64,000 nucleotides of DNA from Streptomyces endocoffeicus (GTDB lineage Bacteria > Actinomycetota > Actinomycetes > Streptomycetales > Streptomycetaceae). A program made the translations under genes and the position numbers. This document shows, piece by piece, positions 1,221-21,920 of this stretch (the first letter of the stretch is position 1; every line of letters starts with the position of its first letter). The stretch lies in the NCBI RefSeq assembly GCF_016741935.1, contig NZ_JAERRG010000001.1:1054001-1118000 (forward strand), written 5' to 3'. The notes under the pieces are model-generated. The model made no database searches and was not told where the DNA came from. It saw only the letters and a list, made by a program, of their open reading frames with translations.

Positions 1221-2494
1221 GCCGTACCGAGTCCGAGCGCACCTTCGCCGCACTGCCGCCCGCCCGTGGCCGCGGCTTCGCCCGCACCTGGTGGGGCCAG
1301 GCGTGGCTGAAGGCCCTGGAGGACACGGCGCTGGACGGCGAGCAGCTGAAGCGCGGCCGCAAGCAGGCGCGCGAGGGAGCGGTGGGCGCGGTCTGCGTAC
1401 GCCCCGGCCGGGTCACCGCCGTGGTGCGGGACCGCGACCGCACGCCTTACCGGTCCGATGTGCTGCTGCGGGAGTTCACCGACGCGGAATGGGACCGGCT
1501 GCTGGAGGTGGTCGCGGACCGCTCCGGCCATATCGCCGCCCTGCTGGACCGCGACATGCCCCCGCAGCTGGCCGAGGACGCGGCGGCCGTGGGCGTCGAA
1601 CTGCTGCCGGGGATAGGCGATCTGGAGCCGGAGTGCGGCTGTGAGGCGTGGGACCACTGCCCGCACACCGCCGCGCTGTGCTACCAGCTCGCCCGGCTGC
1701 TGGACGAGGATCCGTATGTGCTGCTCCTGATGCGCGGACGCGGGGAGCGGGAGCTGCTGGACGAGCTCCAGGTGCGCAGCGCGGCGCGGGCCGCCCGGCA
1801 CCTGCCGCGGACGGCGGAGGACGCCGCTCCGCCGGCTCCGGAGGGCGTACCGGCCCGGGAGGCGTTCGCCGCGCCCGGTCCGCCCCCGCTGCCCGCGCCC
1901 CCGCCCGCCGTCGCCGCGCCCGGCCGTCCTCCGGCGCTGGCGGGCGGCACGGACCCGGCCGAGGGGCTGGACGTGGCCGCGCTGGAGTTCCTGGCGGCGG
2001 AGGCCGCGGTACGCGCCCAGCGGCTGTTGGCCGAGGCGCTCGCGCCCGGCCACGCCACCGCCCCGGTCCCGGCCGCGTTGACGGTCTGGCAGGACACGGT
2101 GCGGCTGACCGCTGCCGGTCCCCCGGCGCCGATCGCCGCCCGGCTCGCGACGGGCTGCGGGCGCGATCGCGCCGATCTGGCGCGGGCCGTCCGCGCCTGG
2201 GAGCACGGCGGGGCCGCCGCGCTCGCCGTGCTGGAGGAGGAGTGGACGCCGGACGTGGAGGCCCTCGCGCGGGCCCGCGCCCAGCTCGCGGCCGCCTGGG
2301 AGGGGGACGAGCGGGCGCCCCGGCTGCGCGCCACGGCGAACCGCTGGACGGTGGTGGGCGCGGATCTCCAGGTGCGCTATGGCCAGGACGGCCGCTGGTG
2401 GCCGTACCGCAGGGAACGCGGCCGCTGGTGGCCCTCGGGCCCGGCCGGACACGACCCGGCGGCGGCGCTGGCGATGCCCGGCTCCGACGGCTGA
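1217..2494 (+). CDS. SWIM zinc-finger domain protein
   Basis: A 425-residue protein starting at the ATG that overlaps the SNF2 stop codon. Around residues 139-150 it has the SWIM zinc motif CxC...CxH (CGCEAWDHCPH). The N-terminal 130 residues begin with the usual RGFARTWWGQAWL segment of SNF2-partner proteins. A proline/alanine-rich linker near residues 200-250 separates this from an alpha-helical C-terminal domain ending in two YRRERGRWWP-like tryptophan motifs. SWIM domains bind DNA or protein, and the constant pairing with an SNF2 ATPase suggests it is that enzyme's partner subunit. No catalytic motif is visible. Confidence 0.88.
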   Translation: MSRTESERTFAALPPARGRGFARTWWGQAWLKALEDTALDGEQLKRGRKQAREGAVGAVCVRPGRVTAVVRDRDRTPYRSDVLLREFTDAEWDRLLEVVADRSGHIAALLDRDMPPQLAEDAAAVGVELLPGIGDLEPECGCEAWDHCPHTAALCYQLARLLDEDPYVLLLMRGRGERELLDELQVRSAARAARHLPRTAEDAAPPAPEGVPAREAFAAPGPPPLPAPPPAVAAPGRPPALAGGTDPAEGLDVAALEFLAAEAAVRAQRLLAEALAPGHATAPVPAALTVWQDTVRLTAAGPPAPIAARLATGCGRDRADLARAVRAWEHGGAAALAVLEEEWTPDVEALARARAQLAAAWEGDERAPRLRATANRWTVVGADLQVRYGQDGRWWPYRRERGRWWPSGPAGHDPAAALAMPGSDG

Positions 2495-2606
2495 CGCGGC
2501 GCACGGCCGGTGGCGGCATCCCGTCCGCCATCGGCCTCGGGCCAGGGCCAGGAAGGTCGCCCCATCCCGACGGCGCCGCGGTGCCCGCAGACGGGAGGGG
2601 ACGGGC

Positions 2607-2700
2607 GGAAGGTCCAGGCGGCCTGAGGATCCCTGTGAGGCGGAAGGTCCATGCGAGCCGAAGGTCCATGCGGGCCGAAGAACCAGCCATGCCGAAGGCA
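2607..2700. repeat. Degenerate ~17-bp tandem repeat in the gap before the pectinesterase
   Basis: The 298-bp gap 2495-2792 holds no credible gene. It contains about four imperfect copies of a ~17-bp unit of the type CGAAGGTCCATGCGRGC (R = A/G), two of them nearly identical and adjacent at about 2641-2676, and a weaker earlier copy near 2607. No hairpin is evident. It resembles the other short tandem repeats scattered through this window. Confidence 0.6.
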
Positions 2701-2792
2701 GCCGGGCGGCAGGCGGCAACCTTTGAGTGGGCCGTGGAGACCGTAAGGCGTCAACCCCCTCGGCACGCCTCCACGGGACGGAGTCACCGACC

Positions 2793-3881
2793 ATGACCCT
2801 CAGTCCACGGCGCCCCCGGCGCCGCCGCCCCGCTCCGCTCATCGGCTCCCTGGCGCTGGCCACCGGCGTCGGGCTAGCCGTCGCCCCGGCCCACGCCACC
2901 ACGCCCACAGCCGACACGCGCACGGCCGCGGCGGCCACCATCGTGGTGGCCAAGGATGGCAGCGGCACCTACACCACCGTGCAGGCGGCCGTCGACGCGG
3001 TGCCGGCGAACAACCCGTCCGCCGTCACCATCTCCATCAAGCCCGGTACGTACCGCGAGACGGTGAAGGTTCCCGCCAACAAGCCGCACATCCGGCTGGT
3101 GGGCACTACGAGCAGCAAGAACGACGTGACGATCGTCTACAACAACGCCTCCGGCACCCCCAAGCCCGGCGGTGGCACCTACGGCACCAGCGGCAGCGCG
3201 ACCGTGGCCATCGAGGCCGATGACTTCCAGGCCCGCAATCTGCAGTTCGTGAACGACTTCAACGAGGGCAACACCGGCATCACCGACAAGCAGGCGGTCG
3301 CGCTGCGCACCGCGGGCGACCAGATCGTCCTGGACAACATCGGCGCGGTCGGGGACCAGGACACCCTGCTGCTGGACTCCGCGAGCAAGGACAAGGTCGG
3401 CCGGGTGTATGTCAACAACGCCTGGATCCAGGGGAATGTCGACTTCATCTTCGGCCGGGCCTCCGCCGTGCTCAACAAGTCGGCGATCCGGCTCGTCAAG
3501 CGCTACGACGGCAGCTCCGGCGGCTTTGTCGCGGCGCCCTCGACGGCGGCCGGGAGGAAGGGCTTCCTGTTCATCAACAGCAACATCACCGGGGATGTCA
3601 GCTCCCGGTCGTTCTATCTCGGCCGTCCCTGGCACGCGGGCGGCGACGCCAGTCTCGATCCGCAGGCGATCGTTCGCAATACGGATCTGTCAGCGGCGAT
3701 CAAGACCACACCGTGGACGGACATGAGCGGCTTCTCCTGGAAGGACGACCGCTTCGCGGAGTACAAGAACACCGGCGCCGGTTCCGGTGCGGCGAGCACG
3801 GACCGTCCGCAGCTGACCGACGCCCAGGCCGCGGACTACGAGATCGCCGACTGGCTCGGCGGCTGGCAGCCGTCGTCCTGA
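2793..3881 (+). CDS. Secreted pectinesterase (pectin methylesterase)
   Basis: A 362-residue enzyme. The chosen ATG has a GGAG sequence about ten bases upstream. A Sec signal peptide is visible: an Arg-rich n-region, hydrophobic core LIGSLALATGVGLAVA and an AHA-like cleavage site near residue 34. The mature part is a right-handed beta-helix of carbohydrate esterase family 8 with all key motifs: GTYRE, QAVALR (oxyanion Gln), QDTLLL (first catalytic Asp), GNVDFIFG (second catalytic Asp) and LGRPW (Arg). It removes methyl groups from plant pectin outside the cell. No pectate lyase is adjacent. A strong hairpin follows at 3918-3957. Confidence 0.95.
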   Translation: MTLSPRRPRRRRPAPLIGSLALATGVGLAVAPAHATTPTADTRTAAAATIVVAKDGSGTYTTVQAAVDAVPANNPSAVTISIKPGTYRETVKVPANKPHIRLVGTTSSKNDVTIVYNNASGTPKPGGGTYGTSGSATVAIEADDFQARNLQFVNDFNEGNTGITDKQAVALRTAGDQIVLDNIGAVGDQDTLLLDSASKDKVGRVYVNNAWIQGNVDFIFGRASAVLNKSAIRLVKRYDGSSGGFVAAPSTAAGRKGFLFINSNITGDVSSRSFYLGRPWHAGGDASLDPQAIVRNTDLSAAIKTTPWTDMSGFSWKDDRFAEYKNTGAGSGAASTDRPQLTDAQAADYEIADWLGGWQPSS

Positions 3882-3909
3882 GCGGTCGGCAGCCGGAGTC
3901 CTGAGCCGG
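3865..3909. repeat. Tandem duplication of the pectinesterase 3' end including its stop codon
   Basis: The last codons and TGA (3865-3885, GGCAGCCGTCGTCCTGAGC) are followed directly by a second, slightly diverged copy (3888-3906, GGCAGCCGGAGTCCTGAGC), about 23 bp per unit. The second copy also carries a TGA. This is one of five gene ends in the window duplicated in this way. Confidence 0.75.
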
Positions 3910-3917
3910 TGAGAGCC

Positions 3918-3957
3918 CCGGCCGCCGGTCCCGTCGGGGGGCGGGACCGGCGGCCGG
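3918..3957 (+). terminator. GC-rich hairpin downstream of the pectinesterase
   Basis: Perfect inverted repeat of about 16 bp (left arm 3918-3933, right arm 3942-3957; core GGCCGCCGGTCCCG) with an eight-base G-rich loop. There is no T-run, as is common for Streptomyces terminators. It sits between the pectinesterase and the convergent xylA and may serve both. Confidence 0.7.
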
Positions 3958-3961
3958 ACAC

Positions 3962-5338
<1,377 letters not shown>

Positions 5339-6796
5339 ATGGCAGCAGCAGCCGTGCCCGTGCCGCAAGGACCGCTCGTCGTCGGCGTGGACAGCTCCAC
5401 GCAGTCGACCAAGGCGCTCGTCGTCGACTCCGCGACCGGTGCGGTCGTCGCCCGAGGACAGGCCCCGCACACCGTCGGCGGCGGCAGCGACGGCACCGGT
5501 AAGGAGTCCGTCCCCGAGCAGTGGTGGGAGGCGCTGACCGAGGCGCTGCGCCAGTGCGGGACCCCGGCCCGGGAGGCGGCCGCGATCTCCGTGGGCGGCC
5601 AGCAGCACGGCCTGGTCACCCTGGACGCCTCCGGCCGCTCGGTGCGGCCCGCCCTGCTGTGGAACGATGTGCGCTCCGCGCCGCAGCGCGACCGGCTCAT
5701 CGAGGAACTGGGCGGCCCCAAGGCGTGGGCCGAGCGGGTGGGCAGCGTGCCCGCGCCCGCCTTCACCATCACCAAGTGGGCCTGGCTCATGGAGAACGAA
5801 CCGGAGGCGGCCCGCGCCACCACGGCCGTCCGGCTCCCCCACGACTACCTCACCGAGCGGCTCACCGGCTACGGCACCACCGACCGCGGCGACGCCTCGG
5901 GCACCGGCTGGTGGGCCTCGGGCACCGAGTCCTACGACGAGGAGATCCTGGACCGGGTCGGGCTCACCCCCGAGCTGCTGCCGCGCGTGCTGCGCCACGG
6001 CGAGGCCGCCGGGACCGTACGGGAGCTGCCCGATCTGCCGCTGCCCACCGGCGCCCTGGTGGCCACCGGCACGGGCGACAACATGGCGGCCGCCCTGGGG
6101 CTCGGTCTGCGCCCCGGGCAGCCGGTGCTGAGCCTGGGCACCTCCGGCACCGTCTACGCGGTCTCGGCCCACCGGCCCGCCGACCCCACCGGGGTGGTCG
6201 CGGGGTTCGCCGACACGCGTGACGCCTGGCTGCCGCTGGCGTGCACGCTCAACTGCACCCTCGCGGTCGACCGGATCGCGGCGCTGCTGGGCCGCGACCG
6301 GGAGGCGGTGGAGCCGGGCGGCTCGGCCGTGCTGCTGCCGTTCCTCGACGGCGAGCGCACCCCTCATCTGCCGCACGCCTCGGGGCTGCTGCACGGTCTG
6401 CGCCACGACACCACACCGGGGCAGGTGCTCCAGGCCGCCTACGACGGGGCCGTCTTCGCCCTGCTCACCGCGCTGGACCAGGTGCTGGACGCGGACGCGG
6501 CGCCGGACGCCCCGCTGCTGCTCATCGGCGGCGGAGCCAAGGGCACCGCATGGCGGGAGACGGTCCGGCGGCTGAGCGGACGCCCGGTCCAGGTGCCCCG
6601 GGCCGAGGAGCTGGTCGCCCTCGGGGCCGCCGCGCAGGCCGCGGGGCTGGCGCTGGGCGAGGACCCGGCGGCGGTGGCGCGGCGCTGGTCGACCGCCGAG
6701 GGGCCGTCCTACGGTCCGGTGCCCCGCGACGAGGCGGCGCTGGACCGGCTCTCCCGGGTGCTGGCGGACGCGGACGGCCTGCTGCGCCACGCGTGA
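5339..6796 (+). CDS. xylB: Xylulokinase
   Basis: A 485-residue FGGY-family sugar kinase that phosphorylates D-xylulose to xylulose 5-phosphate for the pentose phosphate pathway. It shows the phosphate-1 loop VVGVDSSTQSTKALV near residue 14, GGQQHGLV, LLWNDVRS, GTGDNMAAALG (phosphate-2), LGTSGTVYAVS and LLIGGGAKGTAWRE (adenosine motif). The ATG follows AAGGGAGAG. It is divergent from xylA and followed, 99 bp on, by the ROK regulator. The N-terminus before the kinase fold is only about 12 residues, so it lacks the long disordered tail typical of Family 2 encapsulin cargo. Confidence 0.95.
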   Translation: MAAAAVPVPQGPLVVGVDSSTQSTKALVVDSATGAVVARGQAPHTVGGGSDGTGKESVPEQWWEALTEALRQCGTPAREAAAISVGGQQHGLVTLDASGRSVRPALLWNDVRSAPQRDRLIEELGGPKAWAERVGSVPAPAFTITKWAWLMENEPEAARATTAVRLPHDYLTERLTGYGTTDRGDASGTGWWASGTESYDEEILDRVGLTPELLPRVLRHGEAAGTVRELPDLPLPTGALVATGTGDNMAAALGLGLRPGQPVLSLGTSGTVYAVSAHRPADPTGVVAGFADTRDAWLPLACTLNCTLAVDRIAALLGRDREAVEPGGSAVLLPFLDGERTPHLPHASGLLHGLRHDTTPGQVLQAAYDGAVFALLTALDQVLDADAAPDAPLLLIGGGAKGTAWRETVRRLSGRPVQVPRAEELVALGAAAQAAGLALGEDPAAVARRWSTAEGPSYGPVPRDEAALDRLSRVLADADGLLRHA

Positions 6797-6895
6797 GCGC
6801 GCCGCGCGGGAACGCCGTACGGCGGCGGCCGGGCGCCCCGGTTGTCGTACCGGCCCGGCACAATGAGCGGATCGGCCGAGAGGAGACGGAATCAG

Positions 6896-8161
6896 GTGGC
6901 AGCGCCACTGCCCAACACCCAGCAGGCGATGCGCCGGCGCAATCTCTCCCTCGTGCTGCACGCCGTGGCCGCCCACGGCCCGCTGTCCCGTGCCGCGGTG
7001 GCGGCGCGGGTGGGGCTCACCCGGGCCGCCGTCTCCACGCTCGTCGACGAGCTGATCCGGGACGGGCTGCTGGTCGAGCTGGGCCCCTCCCGGCCCGGTA
7101 CGGTCGGCCGCCCCGGCAGCGCCCTCCAGCTCAACGAGCGCGGTCCGGCCGGGCTGGGCGCGGAGATCGGGGTGGACCACCTCGCGGTGTGCGCGATGGA
7201 CCTCGCCGGGCGGATACGGGCCCGTACGGAGCTCGCCTCGGCGAACCGCGACCGCCCACCGGCCCCGGTGCTCGCCCAGCTCGCCGGCCTGGTCCGGCAG
7301 GTCGCGGCGGAGGCGGAGCTGGGCGGGCTGCGGCCGGTGGGGCTCGCGGTGGCGGTGCCCGGCCTGGTGGCGCGGGACTCGTCGCTGGTCGTCCGCGCCC
7401 CCAACCTGGGCTGGGAGGGCGTGGACATCGGCCCCGAGCTGCGCGCGGCGCTGCCAGGTCTGCCGGTGACCGTGGACAACGAGGCGAATCTGGGGGCGCT
7501 CGCCGAGCTGTGGCGGGGCGGCCACGACCCGGCGCCCCGGGACTTCGTCCATGTCTCGGCCGAGATCGGCATCGGCGCCGCGGTCGTGCTCGACGGGCAA
7601 CTGCTGCGCGGCACCCACGGTTTCGCGGGCGAGCTGGGCCATGTGCCGGTGCGCCCCGAGGGGCCCGAGTGCGCCTGCGGAGGCCGCGGCTGTCTGGAGC
7701 AGTACGCGGGCGAGGAGGCGGTGCTGCGGGCGAGCGGCCTGTCCTCGGAGGAGGCCGCGGCCCAGCACCCGGGCCCCGGCGGCCGTATCGCCGTGCTGGC
7801 GGTGCGGGCGGCGAGCGGCGACCAGCGGGCGCGGCGTGCGCTGCGCGGCGCGGGCTCGGCGCTCGGAATCGCCCTCGCGGGCGCGGTGAACCTCCTGGAC
7901 CCGGAGAAGGTGGTGCTCGGCGGCGCGCTGACGCCGCTGGCGCCCTGGCTGCTGCCCGCCCTGGAGCGGGAGTTGGGACGGCGGCTCACCGACCCGGCCC
8001 GTCCGGGCAGCGGGGCGGTGACCGTCTCCCGGCTCGGCCCGGACGGTCCGCTGCTGGGCGCGGCCAGCTCGGTGGTGCAGGCGGTCCTCGACGATCCGGC
8101 GGGGTTCCGGGACCCCGCCGGGGCCGGTGAGCCGGCCGGGATCAGAGGAAGCGATGCATGA
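6896..8161 (+). CDS. ROK-family transcriptional regulator, probable xylose repressor
   Basis: A 421-residue protein. I chose GTG 6896 because AGGAGA lies about ten bases upstream; ATG 6863 and TTG 6842 are possible but lack such a site. Residues 15-75 form a winged helix-turn-helix (RNLSLVLHAVAAHGPLSRAAVAARVGL). The rest is a ROK sugar-sensor domain with HGFAGELGHVPV and the zinc motif CxCGxxGC (CACGGRGCLEQY). Being beside xylA/xylB, it probably represses them until xylose is bound. Its last 20 bases overlap the 3' end of the convergent GNAT gene. Confidence 0.9.
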   Translation: MAAPLPNTQQAMRRRNLSLVLHAVAAHGPLSRAAVAARVGLTRAAVSTLVDELIRDGLLVELGPSRPGTVGRPGSALQLNERGPAGLGAEIGVDHLAVCAMDLAGRIRARTELASANRDRPPAPVLAQLAGLVRQVAAEAELGGLRPVGLAVAVPGLVARDSSLVVRAPNLGWEGVDIGPELRAALPGLPVTVDNEANLGALAELWRGGHDPAPRDFVHVSAEIGIGAAVVLDGQLLRGTHGFAGELGHVPVRPEGPECACGGRGCLEQYAGEEAVLRASGLSSEEAAAQHPGPGGRIAVLAVRAASGDQRARRALRGAGSALGIALAGAVNLLDPEKVVLGGALTPLAPWLLPALERELGRRLTDPARPGSGAVTVSRLGPDGPLLGAASSVVQAVLDDPAGFRDPAGAGEPAGIRGSDA

Positions 8162-10010: not shown

Positions 10011-11423
10011 ATGACGACGTCCGTTGAACCGGGTTCCGGTACCGACATTTCGCAGCCGCAGTTGAGCCTCGGCACGGCGGCCGCGCGGAATCTGGCGACG
10101 ACGACCAAATCCGTTCCGCAAATGCAGGGCCTCACCTCGCGGTGGCTGCTGCGCATGCTGCCGTGGGTGCAGGTTCCGGGTGGTTCCTACCGGGTGAACC
10201 GCCGGGCCTCCCATACGCTCGGGGACGGCCGGGTGGAGTTCACCACCACCGGATCACAGGTGCGGGTCATCCCGGTCGAGCTGCGCGAGCTGCCGCTGCT
10301 GCGCCGGTTCGAGGACACCGTGGTGCTCGGGGCCCTGGCGGACCGCTTCACCCAGCGGGAGTTCGCGCCCGGCGATGTGCTGGTGGAGGCCGGGCGCCCG
10401 GCCGATGAGCTCCTCCTCATCGCCCACGGCAAGGTCGACAAATTGACCGAGGGCGCGTTCGACGAGCCCTCGGTGGTCGGCTCGGCCGCCGGTGGCGACC
10501 ACATCGGGGAGCCGGAGCTGACCGCCGCCGAGGCGGGCACCTGGGGCATCACCGTGAAGGCCGTGACGTCCTGCACGGTGCTGACCCTGCCCCGGCAGGA
10601 GTTCGAGGAGCAGCTGGACCGCTCACCCGAACTGCGCGCGCATGTCGAGGAGGTGCGCTCGGCGCCGGAGACCGAGCGGAACGAGCACGGGGAGACGGCC
10701 ATCGCGCTGGCCTCGGGCCACTCGGGCGAGCCGATCCTGCCGGGCACCTTCGCGGAGTACGAGCTGGCGCCGCGGGAGTACGAGCTGAGCGTGGCCCAGA
10801 CCGTGCTGCGCGTCCACACCCGCGTCGCCGACCTCTACAACGAGCCCATGAACCAGGTCGAGCAGCAGCTCCGCCTCACCATCGAGGCCCTGCGCGAACG
10901 CCAGGAGCACGAGCTCATCAACAACCCCGAGATCGGTCTGCTGCACAACGCCGACCTGTCCCAGCGCATCCACACCCGCGGCGGACCGCCCACCCCGGAC
11001 GACCTCGACGCGCTGCTGGCCACCGTCTGGAAGGACCCGGGGCTGATCCTGGCGCATCCGCGCGCCATCGCGGCGATCGGCCGGCAGTTCAACAGCCGTG
11101 GCATCTCCCCGCAGCCCACGGAGGTGAACGGGCATGCGCTGCCGGCCTGGCGGGGCGTGCCCATCCTCCCGTGCAACAAGATTCCGGTCTCCCGGAGCGG
11201 GGTGAGCTCCATTCTCGTTCTGCGCACCGGGGAGGAGAACCAGGGGGTCATCGGACTGCACCGCACCGGTATTCCCGACGAATACCAGCCGAGCCTCTCG
11301 GTGCGGTTCATGGGAATCAGCGAGCAGGCCATCATCTCGTATCTCGTCAGCGCCTACTATTCCGCGGCCGTGCTCGTCCCGGACGCGCTCGGAATTCTGG
11401 AGAACGTGGAAGTCGGGCTCTGA
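10011..11423 (+). CDS. Family 2B encapsulin shell protein, copy 1
   Basis: A 470-residue protein, often misannotated as a Crp/cyclic-nucleotide-binding regulator. There is no helix-turn-helix. An extended N-arm ([21 protein letters not shown], residues 19-39) leads into the HK97-type shell fold. A cyclic-nucleotide-binding-like domain is inserted at about residues 100-215 ([25 protein letters not shown]). The shell fold resumes with [26 protein letters not shown] at about 260 and runs to the C-terminus ([40 protein letters not shown]). This matches known Family 2B encapsulins, which self-assemble into protein nanocompartments. A paralogue follows 91 bp downstream. Usual cargo genes (terpene cyclase, prenyltransferase) are not adjacent. 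Confidence 0.92.
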
Positions 11424-11514
11424 ATCCGCCCGACGGACTCTGACGTCCGCCCGACCGGGCCCGTGGCCTTCGCATACCTTCCCGAAGATCTACCGAAATG
11501 GGTGATGAGCACTT

Positions 11515-12903
11515 ATGACCACCTCCGTGGAGTCCGGTGAGCAGCCGCTGAGTCTGGGCACGGCCGCCGCGCGGAATCTGGCGACCACCACCAAGTCCGT
11601 TCCGCAGATGCAGGCCATCTCCTCCCGGTGGCTGCTGCGCGTCCTCCCCTGGGTCCAGGTGTCGGCCGGTACGTACCGGGTGAACCGCCGGCTGACCTAC
11701 ACGGTCGGGGACGGGCGGGTGGAGTTCATCACCACCGGATCACAGGTGCGGGTCATCCCGCCGGAGCTGGGCGAGCTGCCGACGCTGCGCGGCTTCGGGG
11801 TCACCTCCGTGCTGGAGTCGCTGGCCGACGGCTGTGTCCAGCGCGAGTACGCGCCGGGGGATGTGCTGGTGGAGGCGGGCCGCCCGGCCGACCAGGTGTT
11901 CCTGATCGCCCATGGCAAGGTCCGCCAGATCGCCCCCGGCGCGTATGACGAGGGCAGCACGCTGGCGGTGCTGGCCGACGGGGAGTACTTCGGCGACGCG
12001 GTGCTGACCGGTCCGGAGCACACCTGGGAGTTCACCGCCCGGGCCGTCACCCGGACCACGGTGCTCACCCTCCCCCGCCGCGTCGTCCAGGAGGCCGCCG
12101 ACCGCTCCGCGTCGCTGCGCGACCATCTCCAGGGGCTCGCCGAGCGGACCGCGCCCGCTCAGAACCGGCGCGGTGAGGCCGATATCGCCATCGCGTCCGG
12201 CCACTCGGGCGAGCCGGCCCTGCCGGGCACGTTCGTGGACTACGAGCTGGAGCCGCGGGAGTACGAGCTGAGCGTGGCCCAGACCGTGCTGCGGGTCCAC
12301 ACCCGCGTCGCCGACCTCTACAACGAGCCCATGAACCAGGTCGAGCAGCAGCTCCGGCTCACCATCGAGGCCCTGCGCGAACGCCAGGAGCACGAGCTCG
12401 TCAACAACCGGGAATTCGGTCTGTTGCACAACGCCGACCTGTCCCAGCGCATCCACACCCGCAGCGGTCCGCCCACCCCGGACGACCTCGACGCGCTGCT
12501 GGCCCGGCGCCGTAAGACCCAGTATCTGCTGGCGCATCCGCGCACCATCGCCGCCTTCGGGCGGGAGTGCAGCAACCGTGGTCTGTATCCGCAGGGCGTC
12601 GAGGTGGCCGGGGTCGCGGTGCGGGCGTGGCGCGGGGTTCCGCTGCTGCCCTGCAACAAGATCCCGGTCAGCGAGTCCGGCACCAGCTCGATCCTGGCGA
12701 TGCGCACCGGGGAGGAGAGCCAGGGGGTCATCGGACTGCATCAGACCGGTATCCCGGATGAGTACGAGCCCAGTCTGAACGTCCGGTTCATGGGCATCAG
12801 CGAGCAGGCCGTGACGTCCTATCTGGTCTCCGCCTACTACTCGGCGGCGATTCTGGTGCCCGATGCGGTCGGTGTGCTGGAGGACGTCGAGATCGGCCGC
12901 TGA
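11515..12903 (+). CDS. Family 2B encapsulin shell protein, copy 2
   Basis: A 462-residue paralogue of the preceding gene, near-identical in the N-arm and in the core block from [12 protein letters not shown] to SQRIHTR, but more diverged in the inserted cyclic-nucleotide-binding-like domain (residues ~92-207). Such tandem pairs are known in streptomycetes and are thought to build mixed two-component shells. The shared block is also highly conserved at DNA level (about 10790-10980 against 12265-12470), suggesting recent duplication or gene conversion. No cargo gene follows; the next gene is a small membrane protein on the other strand. Confidence 0.92.
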
Positions 12904-12939: not shown

Positions 12940-13134
12940 TCAGGGACGGACGCTGCTGACCACATCCGCGGTGGCTGCCAGCCCCTCGGAGATGGTGGGC
13001 GCCACGCTGCTGCTCGCCAGGTAGAAGCCCAGCGTCACACAGACCAGCGCATGCGAGATGCGCAGTCCGCCGCTGCGGAGAAACACCACTGTGAGGATCA
13101 GAAGCAGCAGGACCACGGAGATGGAAATGGCCAT
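12940..13134 (-). CDS. Small two-helix membrane protein of unknown function
   Basis: A 64-residue protein with a very strong ribosome site (GAGGAGG six bases before the ATG), which supports it as real. Residues 3-20 (ISISVVLLLLILTVVFLR) and about 28-48 (SHALVCVTLGFYLASSSVAP) are hydrophobic segments separated by a short RSGGLR loop; the tail is soluble. I recognise it only as a type of small conserved streptomycete membrane protein. Its 3' end faces the encapsulin pair across 36 bp; a link to them is not shown. Confidence 0.75.
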   Translation of the reverse strand: MAISISVVLLLLILTVVFLRSGGLRISHALVCVTLGFYLASSSVAPTISEGLAATADVVSSVRP

Positions 13135-13277: not shown

Positions 13278-13300
13278 GAGCGGGCGTGGCGAGCCCGCTC
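13278..13300. terminator. Hairpin overlapping the stop of the GMC oxidoreductase
   Basis: Perfect 8-bp arms GAGCGGGC (13278-13285) and GCCCGCTC (13293-13300) with a 7-base loop. The right arm reaches into the GMC stop codon at 13299-13301. It is a plausible terminator for the minus-strand operon. Confidence 0.55.
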
Positions 13301-14816
13301 AGGCGTCGCCGCGGATCAGCTCGGCGGCCATCTCGCCGATCATGACGCAGGCCGCGTTGGTGTTGGCCGAGACGATCGACGGCATGATCGATCCATCGGC
13401 GATCCGCAGCCCCTCGACGCCGCGGACGCGCAGCCGGGGGTCCACCACCGAATGCTCGTCCCCGCCCATCCGGCAGGTGCCGACGTGGTGGAAGTAGGTG
13501 CCGGTGTTCTCGCGGACGAAGTCGGCCAGTCCGTCCCGGCCGCTCACCCCGGGGCCGGGCAGCAGTTCACGCGGCTGCCACTCCCCGAACGCGTCGGTGG
13601 CGGCCAGCGACCGGGCCAGTTCGACTCCCTGGACCAGGGTGGCGAGGTCCCTTCCGTCGCTGAGATAGCCGGGGTCGATCAGCGGCCGGTCCTCGGGGTC
13701 CGCACCGGAGAGCCGGACGGTGCCCCGGCTGTGGGGCTGCATCGCGGCGGCCGTCAGGGTGAAGCTGTTCGGCGGGAACGGCAGCAGCCTCGGGTGGAAC
13801 GGGATGTGAAAGAGGAACACCTCGAGGTCGGGGCGGGGCAGCGCGGGGTCGGTCCGGGTGAACAGGGCCGCCTCGGCGGTGGTCAGCGGGGGCGGCGGCA
13901 GCGGGGTACCCGCCTCGTGGACCAGCCCGACCAGGGGGTGGTCCTGCAGATTGGCCCCCACCTCGGGGGCGTCCACCAGCACCGGGACGCCCACCTCGCG
14001 CAGATGGCCGGCCGGGCCGATTCCGGAGAGCATCAGCAGCTTGGGCGAGTCCACCGAGCCCGCGCACACGATGACCTCACGCGCCGCGCGCACCCGGCGT
14101 GCCACACCGCCGGAGCCCGCGTATTCGACGCCGACGCAGCGGGTGCCCTCGAAGAGCAGCCGCTGTGCGTGGGCCTCGGTACGCACGGTCAGGTTGGGGC
14201 GGTCCATCGCCGGGTCGAGGTAGGCGACCGCCGTGCTCTGGCGACGGCCTTCGTGGACGGTCCACTCATGGCGCCCGGCGCCGTCGCTCTCCGCGCCGTT
14301 GAAGTCGTCGTTGTAGGGATGGCCGAGTTCCTTGGCGGCGTCGAGGAAGGCGGTGCTCAGCGGGTTGGGCGTCTCGGCCCGGCTGAGCCGCAGCGGGCCG
14401 CCGGTGCCCCGGAAGCGCGGGTCACGGCCCTCGGCGTGCTCGAGGGCGCGGAAGGTCTCCAGCACCGAGGCGGCGTCCCAGCCGGTGCAGCCGTCGGCCG
14501 CCCAGGCGTCGAAGGTGCCGAGGTGGCCGCGGACGTAGGTCATCACATTGATGCTGCTGGAGCCGCCGAGCACCTTGCCGCGCGCGGCGGCCTGCGGATG
14601 CCCGGCCAGGCCCGGCTGCGGGACGGTGGTGTAGCCCCAGTCGTGCTCACCGCCGATGAGGGTGAACCACGCGGTGGGGTCGTGGATCTGCGCGGCCGCG
14701 TCGTCCTTCCCGGCCTCCAGCAGCAGCACCCGTACGTCCGGGGCTTCCGTCAGCCGGGCCGCCACCACGGCGCCCGCCGAGCCCGCCCCCACCACGATGT
14801 AGTCGAAGTCGCTCAT
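13299..14816 (-). CDS. GMC-family FAD oxidoreductase (choline dehydrogenase-like)
   Basis: About 505 residues. The N-terminus DYIVVGAGSAGAVVAARL is the FAD dinucleotide fold. GMC signature 1 (GKVLGGSSSINVMTYVRG) is at about residues 78-95, signature 2 (GSVDSPKLLMLSGIGP) near 250, and the catalytic-His region FHHVGTCRMG and SANTNAACVMIGE are near the C-terminus. These enzymes oxidise alcohols such as choline, other primary alcohols or polyethylene glycol; the substrate is not evident. Start 14816 is the second of two adjacent ATGs (the other is 14819), better spaced from GGGGG. It lies 166 bp behind the acyl-CoA dehydrogenase operon. Confidence 0.9.
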   Translation of the reverse strand: MSDFDYIVVGAGSAGAVVAARLTEAPDVRVLLLEAGKDDAAAQIHDPTAWFTLIGGEHDWGYTTVPQPGLAGHPQAAARGKVLGGSSSINVMTYVRGHLGTFDAWAADGCTGWDAASVLETFRALEHAEGRDPRFRGTGGPLRLSRAETPNPLSTAFLDAAKELGHPYNDDFNGAESDGAGRHEWTVHEGRRQSTAVAYLDPAMDRPNLTVRTEAHAQRLLFEGTRCVGVEYAGSGGVARRVRAAREVIVCAGSVDSPKLLMLSGIGPAGHLREVGVPVLVDAPEVGANLQDHPLVGLVHEAGTPLPPPPLTTAEAALFTRTDPALPRPDLEVFLFHIPFHPRLLPFPPNSFTLTAAAMQPHSRGTVRLSGADPEDRPLIDPGYLSDGRDLATLVQGVELARSLAATDAFGEWQPRELLPGPGVSGRDGLADFVRENTGTYFHHVGTCRMGGDEHSVVDPRLRVRGVEGLRIADGSIMPSIVSANTNAACVMIGEMAAELIRGDA

Positions 14817-14909
14817 CATGTGCCCCCGTTCCGGACTCACCCGATGTGCCGCACAGCTGTTCGGCACTCTAGTGGCGTGATCGCGGAGCGGGGGCGGGTT
14901 CGCCGGATC

Positions 14910-18574: not shown

Positions 18575-19840
18575 ATGACGACTGTGCCCGACGACAAGGC
18601 GATCAGCGAGGCCGAGATGGAGGCCAGGCTGCACGGCATCTGTTTCAAGACCGGGCCGCCTCGCCGCATCGGAGTCGAACTCGAATGGCTCATATACGAC
18701 CCGCACGACCCCGCACGACCCATCGAGGCGACCCGGCTCGAAGCCGCGGTCACCGCCCTGCGCGGACTGCCACTGCGGTCCGCCGTCACCTTCGAACCCG
18801 GCGGTCAGGTGGAGCTCAGCTCCCTCCCGGCCGACTCCCTCACCGCGTGTGTGGAGTCCGCGGCCGCCGATCTGGTTCTCGTACGTTCCGTACTCACCGG
18901 CCTGGGCCTCGGGCTCGCCGGCCACGGACATGACCCCTGGCGCCCACCGAGACGCTTCCTCTCCACGCCCCGGTACGAGTGCATGGAGACCTACTTCGAC
19001 CGCCGGGGTCCGGCCGGGCGCTCCATGATGTGCAACACCGCCTCCGTGCAGGTCTGCGTGGACGCCGGGCACGAGGAGCCCGGACCGCTCGGCATGGCCC
19101 GGCGCTGGCGGCTCGCCCATCTGCTGGGCGCGGTGCTCACCGCCGCGTTCGCCAACTCGCCGCTGCGCCAGGGCCGCCCCACGGGCTACCGCTCCACCCG
19201 GCAGGCGCTGTGGACGGCGATGGAACCCGGGCGCACCCACGCCCCGGCCGACGGCCGGGATCCCCGCACGGCCTGGGCCCACTACGTGCTGGACGCGCCC
19301 GTGATGGCCATCCGGGACGAGCAGGCACCCTGGACGGTGCCGTCCGGGGTGACCTTCCGCCAGTGGGCCCGGACGGGGCTGCCCCGGCCACCCACCCACG
19401 ACGACCTCGACTTCCACATCTCCACGCTCTTTCCCCCCGTCCGCCCGCGCGGCCATCTGGAACTGCGCATGATCGACGCGCAGAGCGGTGCGGACGGATG
19501 GATCGTCCCCCTTGCCGTCACGGTGGCGCTCTTCGACGATCCCGAGGCTGCTGAAACGGTTTACCGGGTGGTGAAGCCGCTCGCCGAGACGGCCGGGGCG
19601 CGCCCCGCACCGGGCAATCCGCTGTGGCGCGCCGCGGCCCGCCACGGTCTGGCCGACCCCGAGCTGCGCACCGCCGCCGTCAGCTGCTTCACCACGGCGC
19701 TGGACGCGCTGCCGCGTATCGGCGCCTCCCCCGCCATCACCGCCGCCGTCGCCGCCTTCACCGACCGCTATGTGGTCCGCGGCCGATGTCCCGCCGACGA
19801 TCTGCTCGCTCCCCTCACCGGTAAGGAGGGACGGTCATGA
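18575..19840 (+). CDS. egtA: Ergothioneine biosynthesis glutamate-cysteine ligase EgtA
   Basis: A 421-residue enzyme that joins glutamate and cysteine to gamma-glutamylcysteine, the sulfur donor for ergothioneine. It belongs to the GCS2-type family: GVELEWLIYD near residue 33, EPGGQVELSS near 75, SMMCNTASVQVCVD near 150 and LELRMIDAQSGADGWIVP near 295 are the ATP/metal and substrate motifs. The ATG has GGGACGGGAG upstream. It heads egtABCD, with ATGA overlap to egtB. Confidence 0.96.
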   Translation: MTTVPDDKAISEAEMEARLHGICFKTGPPRRIGVELEWLIYDPHDPARPIEATRLEAAVTALRGLPLRSAVTFEPGGQVELSSLPADSLTACVESAAADLVLVRSVLTGLGLGLAGHGHDPWRPPRRFLSTPRYECMETYFDRRGPAGRSMMCNTASVQVCVDAGHEEPGPLGMARRWRLAHLLGAVLTAAFANSPLRQGRPTGYRSTRQALWTAMEPGRTHAPADGRDPRTAWAHYVLDAPVMAIRDEQAPWTVPSGVTFRQWARTGLPRPPTHDDLDFHISTLFPPVRPRGHLELRMIDAQSGADGWIVPLAVTVALFDDPEAAETVYRVVKPLAETAGARPAPGNPLWRAAARHGLADPELRTAAVSCFTTALDALPRIGASPAITAAVAAFTDRYVVRGRCPADDLLAPLTGKEGRS

Positions 19841-21165
19841 CCGCCCCCGATTCCGATCTCACCATCGATCCCGAGGCGCTGCGCCGGCGCGCCGAGAAGG
19901 CGCTGCGCACCGCGCGCGACCGCACCCACACCCTGACCACCTGCGTGGACGAGCCCGACCTCACCGCCCAGCACTCCCCTTTGATGTCCCCGCTGGTATG
20001 GGATCTGGCGCATATCGGCAACCAGGAGGAGCAGTGGCTGCTGCGCGCGGTCGGCGGACGTGACGCCCTGCGCCCCGAGATCGACTCGATCTACGACGCC
20101 TTCGAGCATCCGCGCGCCGAGCGGCCCACCCTGCCGCTGCTGGCACCCGCCGAGGCCCGCGGCTATGTCCACGAGGTGCGCGGCCGGGTGCTGGACATCC
20201 TGGAGCGGATCGAGCTGCGCGGCGCCCCGCTGGTGGACGCGGGCTTCGCCTTCGGCATGATCGCGCAGCATGAGCAGCAGCACGACGAGACGATGCTCAT
20301 CACCCACCAGCTGCGCCGCGGACCCGCCGCGCTCACCGCCCCACCGCCGCCCGGCGCGGGCGAAGGCGCGGCCCTGCCGCAGGAGGTGCTGGTCCCGGGC
20401 GGCCCGTTCACCATGGGCACCTCGGCCGAGCCCTGGGCCCTGGACAACGAGCGGCCCGCGCACCACCGGCTGGTCCCGGCCTTCCACATCGACACCACTC
20501 CGGTGACCAACGGCGCCTACGAGCGGTTCATCGCGGACGGCGGCTACACCGAGCGGCGCTGGTGGACGGCCGACGGCTGGGCGTACATCCAGGAGCACGG
20601 CCTCGCCGCACCGCTGTTCTGGCGGCGCGAGGGCGGGCAGTGGCTGCGCCGGCGGTTCGGGGTGACGGAGCCGGTGCCGCCGGAGGAGCCGGTGGTGCAT
20701 GTGAGCTGGTACGAGGCGGACGCCTACGCCCGCTGGGCGGGGCGGCGGCTGCCGACCGAGGAGGAGTGGGAGAAGGCCGCCCGCCACGACCCGGAGAGCG
20801 GCCGGTCCCGGCGCTATCCGTGGGGCGACGAGGATCCCACGCCCGACCACGCCAACCTGGGCCAGCGCCATCTGCGGCCCGCGGCGGCCGGCAGCTATCC
20901 GCGGGGCGCCTCCCCGCTGGGGGTGCGGCAGCTGATCGGCGATGTGTGGGAGTGGACCTCGAGCGACTTCCTGCCCTACCCGGGGTTCCGCGCCTTCCCG
21001 TACCGCGAGTACTCGGAAGTCTTCTTCGGCCCGTCGCACAAGGTGCTGCGCGGCGGTTCCTTCGCGGTGGACGAGGTCGCCTGCCGGGGCACGTTCCGCA
21101 ACTGGGACCTGCCGGTCCGCCGCCAGATCTTCTCCGGCTTCCGCACCGCGCGGGACGCGTCCTGA
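19837..21165 (+). CDS. egtB: Ergothioneine biosynthesis sulfoxide synthase EgtB
   Basis: A 442-residue non-haem iron enzyme that uses O2 to form the C-S bond between gamma-glutamylcysteine and hercynine. The N-terminal DinB-like domain has VWDLAHIGNQEEQWL and the HEQQHDET motif (iron histidines, residues ~50-150). The C-terminal half is a formylglycine-generating/C-lectin domain with VPGGPFTMGTS, VHVSWYEADAYARWAGRRLPTEEEWEKAAR and VLRGGSFAV. It overlaps egtA by ATGA and egtC by one base (TGATG). Confidence 0.97.
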   Translation: MTAPDSDLTIDPEALRRRAEKALRTARDRTHTLTTCVDEPDLTAQHSPLMSPLVWDLAHIGNQEEQWLLRAVGGRDALRPEIDSIYDAFEHPRAERPTLPLLAPAEARGYVHEVRGRVLDILERIELRGAPLVDAGFAFGMIAQHEQQHDETMLITHQLRRGPAALTAPPPPGAGEGAALPQEVLVPGGPFTMGTSAEPWALDNERPAHHRLVPAFHIDTTPVTNGAYERFIADGGYTERRWWTADGWAYIQEHGLAAPLFWRREGGQWLRRRFGVTEPVPPEEPVVHVSWYEADAYARWAGRRLPTEEEWEKAARHDPESGRSRRYPWGDEDPTPDHANLGQRHLRPAAAGSYPRGASPLGVRQLIGDVWEWTSSDFLPYPGFRAFPYREYSEVFFGPSHKVLRGGSFAVDEVACRGTFRNWDLPVRRQIFSGFRTARDAS

Positions 21166-21920
21166 TGTGCCGGCACCTGGCCTACCTCGGGCCGCGGACC
21201 TCCATCGGCGAGGTGGTGGTGGCGCCCGCGAGCAGCCTGTTCCGGCAGTCGTGGGCGCCGCGGCGGCAGGCGCACGGCACCGTCAACGCCGACGGGTTCG
21301 GCGTCGGCTGGTACGCGTCGGACGACCCGGTGCCCGCGCGCTACCGCCGCGCCGGGCCCATCTGGGGCGATCTGTCCTTCGCCGACCTGGCCCGCGTGGT
21401 ACGCACGGGGGCGCTGATGGCCGCCGTAAGGGATGCCACCGAGGCCAGCGCGGACGGCGAGGCGGGCGCCTCGCCGTTCGCCTCCGGGACCTGGCTGTTC
21501 AGCCACAACGGGGCGCTCCGCGACTGGCCGCACGCGGTCGCGGACCTCGCCGCCGCACTGCCACCGGCGGAGCTGCTCGGCCTGGAGGCGCGGTGCGACT
21601 CGGCGTTCGTCTGGGCGCTGGTGCTGCACCGGCTGCGGCTGGGCCACGCGCCGCCGGAGGCGCTGGCCGAGACCGTCGAGCAGCTCGCCGCCGCCTCCCC
21701 CGACTCACGGCTCAATCTGCTGCTCATGGACGGGGAGACCATCGCCGCCACCGCCTGGGGCGACACGCTGTGGTACCTGGCCGATCCGGACCGGGGCGTG
21801 GTGGTGGCCTCCGAGCCGTACGACCAGGACCCCGGCTGGACCGAGGTCCCCGACCGCACCCTGCTCACCGCCACCCGCACCGATGTACTGCTCACCGCAC
21901 TCAAGGAGGCTTCCCGTTGA
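21165..21920 (+). CDS. egtC: Ergothioneine biosynthesis amidohydrolase EgtC
   Basis: A 251-residue class II glutamine-amidotransferase-like (Ntn) hydrolase that removes the glutamyl group from the gamma-glutamyl hercynylcysteine sulfoxide. The catalytic Cys2 directly follows Met (MCRHLAYLG), and HGTVNADGFGVGWY and WLFSHNGALRDW are the expected active-site segments. It starts one base inside the egtB stop and its TGA overlaps the egtD TTG start. Confidence 0.95.
   Translation: MCRHLAYLGPRTSIGEVVVAPASSLFRQSWAPRRQAHGTVNADGFGVGWYASDDPVPARYRRAGPIWGDLSFADLARVVRTGALMAAVRDATEASADGEAGASPFASGTWLFSHNGALRDWPHAVADLAAALPPAELLGLEARCDSAFVWALVLHRLRLGHAPPEALAETVEQLAAASPDSRLNLLLMDGETIAATAWGDTLWYLADPDRGVVVASEPYDQDPGWTEVPDRTLLTATRTDVLLTALKEASR

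What the first reader, a model, noticed from the sequence alone, without database searches (positions are those of the whole stretch)
10011..12903. Two-component Family 2B encapsulin locus without a cargo gene
Seen: two full-length paralogous shell genes with inserted cyclic-nucleotide-binding-like domains and near-identical core blocks. Established: Family 2B shells usually sit beside terpene cyclase or prenyltransferase cargo. Here the neighbours are a PI-PLC-like enzyme and a two-helix membrane protein. Either the cargo is encoded elsewhere or it is a new type.
Basis: partly seen in the sequence, partly recalled or inferred. Interest (0 to 1): 0.75.

Follow-up and report, generated by a model that had tools for sequence, protein, structure and literature searches.

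The report
Protein shell whose cargo lies elsewhere
This stretch of a Streptomyces genome encodes a known kind of two-part protein shell, and comparing genomes suggests that it packages earthy-odour enzymes encoded far away rather than the sugar kinase next door that gave the type its name.

Summary
Enc1 (10011-11423) and Enc2 (11515-12903) are full-length Family 2B encapsulin shells with the TVWK/RRRK residues that tell apart the two components of the Streptomyces lydicus shell. But "without a cargo gene" needs correcting: xylulokinase (XK), xylA and a ROK regulator lie upstream, so this is the published XK type, for which no native cargo has been shown.

XK looks like a neighbour. Eleven of 11 whorl-forming Streptomyces genomes keep the pair without an XK orthologue. 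The genome's only detected Family 2 shells are this pair, yet it encodes two unlinked, tagged enzymes: 2-methylisoborneol synthase (2-MIBS) and geosmin synthase. Its 2-MIBS operon lost its own shell gene in place; promoter and tag stayed. Such loss or decay appears in 10 of 17 pair-bearing genomes and 0 of 41 resolvable others, one of which has a truncated, fused shell. In the clade that lost it, the tag is as constrained as the catalytic part (dN/dS 0.17, 0.15; spacer 0.71).

Best reading: a two-component shell that takes tagged terpene cyclases encoded elsewhere; inferred, not shown biochemically.

The parts
10011..11423 (+). Enc1, Family 2B encapsulin shell protein, 470 aa; N-arm word LGTAAAR; diagnostic motif 1 = TVWK
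   Evidence: NF041163 753.5 bits; PF19307 + PF00027; TVWK read in the translation and compared with PMC12407261
11515..12903 (+). Enc2, Family 2B encapsulin shell protein, 462 aa; N-arm word LGTAAAR; diagnostic motif 1 = RRRK
   Evidence: NF041163 777.7 bits; PF19307 + PF00027; best solved chain 9bix, E 1.9e-204
5339..6796 (+). xylulokinase (XK), label gene of the published XK type; no tag seen; judged here a neighbour rather than the cargo (start uncertain; the gene caller prefers 5354)
   Evidence: TIGR01312 457.6 bits; no orthologue in 11 of 11 whorl-forming genomes that keep the pair
4048..5220 (-). xylose isomerase-like protein (xylA)
   Evidence: PF01261
6842..8161 (+). ROK-family regulator beside xylB (start uncertain; the gene caller prefers 6896)
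   Evidence: PF00480
8142..8783 (-). GNAT acetyltransferase between XK and the shells, opposite strand (start uncertain; the gene caller prefers 8642)
   Evidence: PF00583
8701..9726 (-). GDPD/PI-PLC-like protein with a signal-like N-terminus (start uncertain; the gene caller prefers 9618); conserved neighbour
   Evidence: PF13653; linked in 16 of 25 Streptomyces loci given, all 16 among the 18 of the window's kind
12940..13134 (-). 64-aa two-helix membrane protein (helices judged by eye), weakly DUF2304-like; most conserved neighbour
   Evidence: linked in 17 of 25 loci given, all 17 among the 18 of the window's kind
13299..14867 (-). GMC oxidoreductase, neighbour only in the closest loci
   Evidence: PF00732 + PF05199; beside the pair in L003-L006 but not in L007-L009

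Best explanation
Enc1 and Enc2 co-assemble into a mixed HK97-fold shell like the one shown for S. lydicus (inferred from homology). The shell's cargo is not encoded beside it. It packages tagged terpene cyclases made from unlinked genes: 2-MIBS where present, whose N-terminal extension carries ...RILRGPSGLGTAGLHLAR..., and probably geosmin synthase, which carries GPTGLGTSAAR at its C-terminus and a related SGLGTSAAS in its linker. XK is an ancestral chromosomal neighbour. Because the pair can accept 2-MIBS, the shell gene that normally heads the 2-MIBS operon became dispensable and was lost several times, while the operon promoter, both enzymes and the tag were kept. Shown here by computation: gene content, in-place deletion in the window's genome, tag constraint in its clade, association with the pair. 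Inferred: co-assembly, physical loading, benefit.
For: (1) The genome's only detected Family 2 shells are Enc1 and Enc2. (2) It encodes an unlinked 2-MIBS matching NF041167 'family 2 encapsulin nanocompartment cargo protein terpene cyclase' at 496.3 bits, cut-off 400, and a geosmin synthase with both motif copies. (3) In most relatives looked at the operon is shell-2MIBS-GPPMT. Here positions -190..-7 before 2-MIBS align at 80-85% with the stretch upstream of the shell gene in four of five shell-keeping relatives compared (not G219), and the alignment then resumes at 2-MIBS: in-place excision. Shell remnants lie beside 2-MIBS in G217, G218 and G083, and decayed pieces in G212 and G213. (4) Loss or decay: 10 of 17 pair-bearing genomes against 0 of 41 resolvable pair-less ones, Fisher p = 3.7e-7, not corrected for kinship. 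Both gene trees separate G218 from the other five close losers; with G204 and the lydicus-like group at least four separate losses are the simplest reading. (5) Among the six close losers the tag has dN/dS 0.165 and no indels; spacer 0.713 with 52% gaps; linker 0.435; catalytic part 0.153. (6) XK shows no tag and has no orthologue in 11 of 11 whorl-forming genomes. (7) 41 of 42 tandem pairs outside Streptomyces have a terpene cyclase or prenyltransferase relative within the locus, against 0 of 30 Streptomyces tandem pairs. (8) Geosmin synthase is present in 20 of 20 pair-bearing genomes examined, with LGTSAAR in the C-terminal segment in 18.
Against: No physical evidence of loading. PMC6428758 (passages read) says eshA is not required for 2-MIB biosynthesis, so shell loss could simply be tolerated. 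Seven of 17 pair-bearing genomes keep the linked shell. Nine of 10 whorl-forming genomes searched and SAJ15 have the pair but no match of 70% or more to 2-MIBS, so 2-MIBS cannot be the only cargo. G083, G204, G212 and G213 have other shells besides the pair, so only six genomes leave the pair as the sole option. Counting G000 and its relative G093 once, the first draw alone gives only p = 0.024. G204 shows no shell remnant, so its loss is inferred. The tag test rests on 17 codons in six related sequences; shell-keeping relatives give a tag dN/dS of 0.285, and in G212/G213/G083 the tag value (0.53) is above spacer (0.46), linker (0.33) and catalytic part (0.31). The geosmin-synthase tag has almost no synonymous change, so selection cannot be measured there. 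In the lydicus-like clade XK lies just upstream of Enc1 on the same strand, which favours XK there.
Confidence: 0.56

Rival explanations
1. XK is the cargo: the shell concentrates xylulokinase for xylose use, as the published operon label implies.
For: XK is within the locus of 11 of 30 Streptomyces tandem pairs; in the lydicus-like clade it is co-directional and just upstream of Enc1 (L072, L221); XK is under purifying selection (dN/dS 0.19).
Against: No tag seen; the pair persists in 11 of 11 whorl-forming genomes whose best XK matches are only 44-53% identical; in the window a ROK gene and two opposite-strand genes lie between; XK is the least conserved of the four neighbours counted, 8 loci against 17, 16 and 15.
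Confidence: 0.15
2. The 2-MIBS shell was lost because encapsulation is dispensable for 2-MIB; the tag persists for another reason or for lack of time, and the pair's cargo is something not identified here.
For: eshA is reported as not required for 2-MIB biosynthesis (PMC6428758, passages); losses cluster in related species; the tag is not measurably constrained in G212/G213/G083.
Against: No outright loss in 41 resolvable pair-less genomes, although all but one of the 44 pair-less genomes (G074) have two or more Family 2 matches; the tag is kept without indels while the spacer beside it is about 45 residues shorter in G093 and G216.
Confidence: 0.2
3. Geosmin synthase, not 2-MIBS, is the main cargo of the pair; losses of the 2-MIBS shell are secondary.
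For: Geosmin synthase is in 20 of 20 pair-bearing genomes examined, all with LGTSAAR in the C-terminal segment or the linker; two of three genomes without a detected shell have no match to it, and the third, fragmentary one lacks the C-terminal tag.
Against: It is also present in pair-less genomes with solo shells; only seven readable pair-less genomes were compared; no selection measure is possible.
Confidence: 0.25
4. The pair serves the locally conserved GDPD-like, NAGPA-like and two-helix membrane proteins.
For: Linkage in 16, 15 and 17 of the 18 loci of the window's kind, kept although gene order changes in the lydicus-like clade.
Against: The GDPD-like and NAGPA-like proteins begin with signal-like N-termini (judged by eye) and the third looks like a membrane protein, so none is an obvious lumen cargo; NAGPA is missing from the window locus; none is linked in the 7 other Streptomyces pair loci given.
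Confidence: 0.08

Closest known systems
Streptomyces lydicus two-component Family 2B encapsulin, XK type (PMC12407261)
   Same: Two adjacent Enc genes, CBD insert, TVWK (Enc1) and RRRK (Enc2) at diagnostic motif 1, xylB nearby; full-length matches to chains 9bix and 9bje (that these are the S. lydicus entries is a guess, the call does not say so)
   Different: Diagnostic motif 2 is similar but not identical by eye; in the window XK is separated from Enc1 by a ROK gene and two opposite-strand genes; shells 65-73% identical to the lydicus-like loci L044, L051 and L072 (S. lydicus itself was not compared)
Family 2B XK operon class (PMC8346489: 124 systems, Streptomyces only, always two shells)
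   Same: xylB, xylA and a ROK regulator near two Family 2B shells
   Different: Evidence here that XK is not needed: the whorl-forming clade keeps the pair without it
eshA-mibA-mibB operon (2-MIBS encapsulin)
   Same: 2-MIBS and GPPMT with the same promoter block and a GPSGLGT tag are in this genome
   Different: The shell gene is missing from the operon here; the only shells detected are the distant pair
Solo Family 2B shell next to a polyprenyl transferase (loci L148, L149, L152, L155; the enzyme of L148 matches f2_encap_cargo4)
   Same: Family 2B shell with a similar N-arm word
   Different: Single shell with a linked cargo-type gene; a different clade in the tree

Membership tests
Family 2B encapsulin shell | HK97-fold SrpI-like core with inserted cNMP-like domain | tested here: met
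   NF041163 over cut-off for both; PF19307 + PF00027 over cut-off for both
Family 2B encapsulin shell | Self-assembly into icosahedral shells | not testable with these tools
   Inferred from homology; Enc2 matches solved full-length chains
Two-component Family 2B system (Enc1/Enc2) | Two shell genes within 10 kb, with Enc1/Enc2 diagnostic residues | tested here: met
   91-base gap; TVWK and RRRK at motif 1; each gene groups with its own kind in the tree, the deeper forks being weak. Motif 2 only compared by eye: similar, not identical
XK-type two-component system | xylB near two Family 2B shells in Streptomyces | tested here: met
   TIGR01312 at 5339-6796; the XK-bearing related loci are all named Streptomyces
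XK-type two-component system | XK is the encapsulated cargo | tested here: inconclusive
   Comparative evidence against; co-directional linkage in the lydicus-like clade for; loading untested. PMC12407261 says no native cargo is determined
Cyclic-nucleotide-responsive shell | Functional cNMP binding | not testable with these tools
   PF00027 over cut-off, but the phosphate-binding Arg position looks replaced in both copies (motif recalled, no call); PMC12407261 says the domain was shown not to bind cyclic nucleotides in a Family 2B shell
Family 2B terpene-cyclase cargo (the unlinked 2-MIBS) | Disordered N-terminal domain with GPTGLGT-like tag; cargo HMM | tested here: met
   NF041167 496.3 bits, cut-off 400; GPSGLGT at residues 79-85. 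Disorder itself only weakly tested: a low-confidence model gave pLDDT 29-42 for residues 1-110, but much of the catalytic part is also low
Family 2B terpene-cyclase cargo (the unlinked geosmin synthase) | GPTGLGTSAAR in linker and C-terminus; cargo HMM | tested here: inconclusive
   C-terminal GPTGLGTSAAR and linker SGLGTSAAS, but NF041168 1185.3 bits, just below its cut-off of 1200

The most novel reading that the evidence does not exclude
Family 2B loading works by mimicry of the shell's own N-arm: the cargo tag (GPTGLGTSAAR) copies the N-terminal shell word (LGTAAAR, LGTSAAR). A tagged enzyme would dock in the shell's N-arm site, so any shell with that site can take any tagged enzyme, wherever its gene lies. 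This would explain how a two-component shell can replace the 2-MIBS operon's own shell. In 1278 proteins called from 79 shell-bearing loci and the first 24 kb of the window, LGT[SA]A[AS]R occurs in 48 of 152 shells, 11 of 33 terpene cyclases, 0 of 34 prenyltransferases and 0 of 1059 other proteins, with 0.10 occurrences expected from composition; a looser pattern gives 112, 14, 0 and 3.
Probability: 0.35. Interest if true: 0.78.

Novelty: new member of a known kind. Interest (0 to 1): 0.62.

Why it matters
PMC12407261 states that no native cargo is known for XK-type shells. These results give a concrete alternative to XK, name species in which the pair is the only Family 2 shell detected, and turn the question into one purification experiment. 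If right, cargo cannot be assigned from neighbouring genes alone, and earthy-odour enzymes encoded away from any shell gene (geosmin synthase, some 2-MIB synthases) may be compartmentalised too.

Tried and rejected
A linked unrecognised cargo gene was sought: the GNAT and GMC neighbours are not conserved with the pair, and the GDPD-like and two-helix neighbours look exported or membrane-bound. A shared promoter element was sought: an 18-base pattern from the stretch upstream of 2-MIBS has no match in the window with up to 3 mismatches. Structure prediction of 2-MIBS and Enc1 with shallow alignments gave mean pLDDT 52.5 and 50.2; not used beyond a weak remark on disorder, and no fold search was run. 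Prenyltransferases: of the eight in the genome six were scanned against NCBIfam; the best two (L089, L090) score 408.5 and 387.7 bits on the cargo model, below its cut-off of 450; not pursued. A wider 2-MIBS survey did not run, so the sample stays at the 199 genomes (52 with true 2-MIBS) plus 22 reached through loci. A class-wide test of geosmin synthase against shells and a genome scan for the tag were planned and not run.

Choices and rows dropped before counts: three pair-less 2-MIBS genomes whose 2-MIBS lies at a contig end (G070, G109, G096) were set aside as unresolved. G040 (truncated shell in frame with 2-MIBS) was counted as linked; counted as a loss it gives p = 3.6e-6. G215 = G177 and G221 = G147 were counted once. 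G147 was counted as pair-bearing by hand: the script found 7 tandem pairs among the 52, and G147's shells are split over contigs (L031), so its pair is likely, not certain. 'Pair-less' means no two shells in tandem on one strand; G052 and G131 have two shells about 5 kb apart in opposite directions and were counted as pair-less, both with a linked 2-MIBS shell. Matches to 2-MIBS under 70% identity were not counted as 2-MIBS. L004's genome was not held; L017's was left out. In the gene calls L021 (Nostoc) gave none. One search was given 25 of the Streptomyces loci, without the near-identical L003-L006 and without L017, L025 and L031.
Full report
WHAT IS THERE. Enc1 (10011-11423) and Enc2 (11515-12903) are intact, co-directional and 91 bases apart. 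Both match the Family 2B shell model NF041163 at 753.5 and 777.7 bits, cut-off 400, and PF19307 plus PF00027. They are 77% identical in the HK97 core and 54% in the inserted domain. Enc1 carries TVWK and Enc2 RRRK at diagnostic motif 1, which PMC12407261 uses to tell the two components of the S. lydicus shell apart (outline, sections 4, 6 and 11 and passages of that paper read); motif 2 is similar, not identical, by eye. The genome is taken to be Streptomyces from its relatives: the closest named loci are S. iranensis, S. sabulosicollis, S. antioxidans and S. rugosispiralis, 97-98% identical in Enc1. Clade names used below (violaceusniger-type, whorl-forming, lydicus-like) are recalled labels for groups of loci.

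THE KNOWN CLASS. A xylulokinase (5339-6796), xylA (4048-5220) and a ROK regulator (6842-8161) lie upstream; XK ends 3.2 kb before Enc1. PMC8346489 (passages read) describes 124 Family 2B systems with XK, only in Streptomyces and always with two shells, and notes that XK does not consistently have the disordered stretches of other Family 2 cargo. PMC12407261 states that no native cargo has been determined for XK systems. So the locus is an ordinary member of a published class, and the useful question is what goes inside.

IS XK THE CARGO? Seventeen genomes were searched for XK. The 11 whorl-forming ones (G199-G209) keep Enc1-Enc2 with the GDPD-like and two-helix neighbours, but their best XK matches are 44-53% identical, against 77% or more at the loci of the other six. 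One search compared gene content of 25 Streptomyces pair loci. In the 18 of the window's kind the two-helix protein is linked in 17, the GDPD-like protein in 16, an NAGPA-like protein in 15 and XK in 8; in the other seven none of the four is. Upstream helicase-like and SWIM-like genes (names recalled) are shared by violaceusniger-type, SAJ15 and whorl-forming loci, so this looks like conserved chromosome order from which XK dropped out. Against this, in L072 and L221 XK sits just upstream of Enc1 on the same strand. Of the 80 loci fetched, 72 have two shells. Of the 42 not named Streptomyces, 41 have a geosmin-synthase-like, 2-MIBS-like or prenyltransferase-like gene within the locus (the exception, L030, is a 5-kb contig); of the 30 Streptomyces ones none does (some loci are cut by contig ends).

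CARGO ELSEWHERE IN THE GENOME. The genome has exactly two matches to PF19307, namely Enc1 and Enc2. Terpene synthases were searched (five matches). One (C192) is 2-MIBS, beside a GPP methyltransferase-like gene (named from its sequence, recalled), with a roughly 110-residue N-terminal extension whose only invariant columns across 15 orthologues, apart from the start and the last few before the catalytic part, lie in RILRGPSGLGTAGL. It matches the NCBIfam cargo model NF041167 over its cut-off. Another (C134) is geosmin synthase with SGLGTSAAS in its linker and GPTGLGTSAAR at its C-terminus, the kind of word that PMC8346489 proposed as targeting sequence; it scores 1185.3 bits on NF041168, just under the cut-off of 1200.

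A NATURAL EXPERIMENT. In Streptomyces the 2-MIBS operon normally starts with its own shell gene: of 199 genomes 90 gave a match at 1e-60 and 52 a true 2-MIBS (71% identity or more); 46 of the 52 have a shell match within 768 bases. Three without one (G000, G093, G083) all carry the tandem pair; three others (G070, G109, G096) end at contig ends and stay unresolved. Genomes reached through pair loci add G214, G216, G217, G218 and G204 without a linked shell, G212 and G213 with decayed pieces, and G219 and G220 with intact ones. In all, 10 of 17 pair-bearing genomes have lost or decaying linked shells, against 0 of 41 resolvable pair-less genomes (p = 3.7e-7; 3.6e-6 if the truncated, fused shell of G040 counts as a loss). 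The first draw alone gives 3 of 8 against 0 of 41, p = 0.003, or p = 0.024 with 2 of 8. None of these values is corrected for kinship, and the pair of G147 is inferred from split contigs.

HOW IT WAS LOST. In the window's genome positions -190..-7 before 2-MIBS align at 80-85% with the stretch upstream of the shell gene in G162, G053, G067 and G220 (no such match in G219), and the alignment then resumes at 2-MIBS; a 17-base block, TCATCTTATCGAGTTAA, is the same in all eight sequences aligned. The flank aligns with G053 at 93% over 5 kb, about 2.2 kb further out there. So the shell gene was cut out in place. G217 keeps shell codons at both ends (the C-terminal piece at E 8e-7). G218 has the first 17 shell residues in frame with 2-MIBS; its protein match alone is weak, E 0.23, and the DNA alignment supports it. 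G083 keeps about 30 N-terminal residues, E 1e-4. In the window's genome, G093 and G204 no remnant was found. Trees of 15 of the 17 genomes (without G147 and G220): in the pair tree shell-keeping G162 and G053 are closer to the five core losers than G218 is (support 0.985), and the 2-MIBS/GPPMT tree also separates G218 from them, though it differs on G067. The core five, G218, G204 and the lydicus-like group make at least four separate losses on the simplest reading.

THE TAG SURVIVES. Among the six related losers the 17-residue tag has dN/dS 0.165 and no indels; the spacer before it 0.713 with half its columns gapped, the linker after it 0.435, the catalytic part 0.153. For comparison, seven shell-keeping relatives give 0.285, 0.604, 1.012 and 0.188. 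In the more distant G212, G213 and G083 the tag is present but its dN/dS is 0.534, above spacer (0.460), linker (0.334) and catalytic part (0.307), so constraint is not demonstrated there. G093 and G216 have spacers about 45 residues shorter but keep the tag. Within GPSGLGT itself five codons differ synonymously and none otherwise among the six. In the loser clade Enc1 and Enc2 remain under purifying selection (0.13 and 0.20).

GEOSMIN SYNTHASE. Thirty genomes were searched and 28 gave a match. It is found in 20 of 20 pair-bearing genomes examined (19 of them, plus the window's own), with LGTSAAR in the C-terminal segment in 18 and in the linker in the other two. Of three genomes in which no Family 2 shell was found, two have no match to it and the third, a fragmentary assembly, has a copy without the C-terminal tag. 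Of seven pair-less genomes with a readable gene (G063, G004, G118, G001, G042, G189, G099) one has the strict C-terminal word and two (G063, G004) differ by one residue. Suggestive, but the sample is small and related. Because most whorl-forming genomes (9 of 10 searched) and SAJ15 lack true 2-MIBS, a geosmin-synthase role, or another cargo, would be needed to explain why they keep the pair.

SHARED WORD. LGT[SA]A[AS]R occurs in 48 of 152 shells, 11 of 33 terpene cyclases, 0 of 34 prenyltransferases and 0 of 1059 other called proteins; 0.10 occurrences in all are expected from composition. A looser pattern gives 112, 14, 0 and 3. Many shell gene calls start late and lose the N-arm, so 48 is a lower bound. 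One search of the paper library for GPTGLGT found only PMC8346489, and the passages read there do not mention the resemblance to the N-arm; I did not find it in print, which is not proof that it is unpublished.

LITERATURE LIMITS. The paper on the 2-MIBS encapsulin that PMC12407261 cites was not found in the library and was not read. PMC6428758 (passages) reports that eshA, mibA and mibB form one operon activated by BldC and that eshA is not required for 2-MIB biosynthesis; this weakens the inference from shell loss but not the contrast between pair-bearing and pair-less genomes.

VERDICT. A new member of a known class, with a comparative case for correcting its likely cargo. Confidence that the pair loads unlinked tagged terpene cyclases: 0.56, lowered slightly on checking because G147's pair is not certain and the tag test has unfavourable controls.

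Noticed in passing
L122 (G040) 1783-3933: One 716-aa open frame joins the N-terminal part of a Family 2B shell to 2-MIBS: a natural shell-enzyme fusion or an assembly error.
   Followed up: partly
L159 (G218) 1498-2784, minus strand: The first 17 residues of the lost shell are in frame with the 2-MIBS N-terminal domain, so the shell's start codon may now start 2-MIBS.
   Followed up: partly
L010, L015, L044, L051, L072 near the pair: An NAGPA-like (phosphodiester glycosidase) gene travels with the shell pair in 15 of 18 loci of the window's kind but is missing from the window; with the GDPD-like gene it hints at an exported phosphodiester function.
   Followed up: partly
L022, L023, L024, L033, L055, L059, L080 upstream of Enc1: In seven Streptomyces pairs without XK a roughly 800-aa, apparently beta-helix-like protein (judged by eye) is encoded divergently beside Enc1 in 7 of 7.
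   Followed up: no
L222 (G083) and L225 (G177): Geosmin-synthase-like genes sit beside their own Family 2B shell, whose tree position is near Enc2 of the pair (support 88/88); the similar shell of L226 (G042) falls with the 2-MIBS shells instead.
   Followed up: partly
window 18584-22882: Four co-directional genes that look like an ergothioneine (egt) cluster downstream of the locus; the name is recalled, not tested.
   Followed up: no
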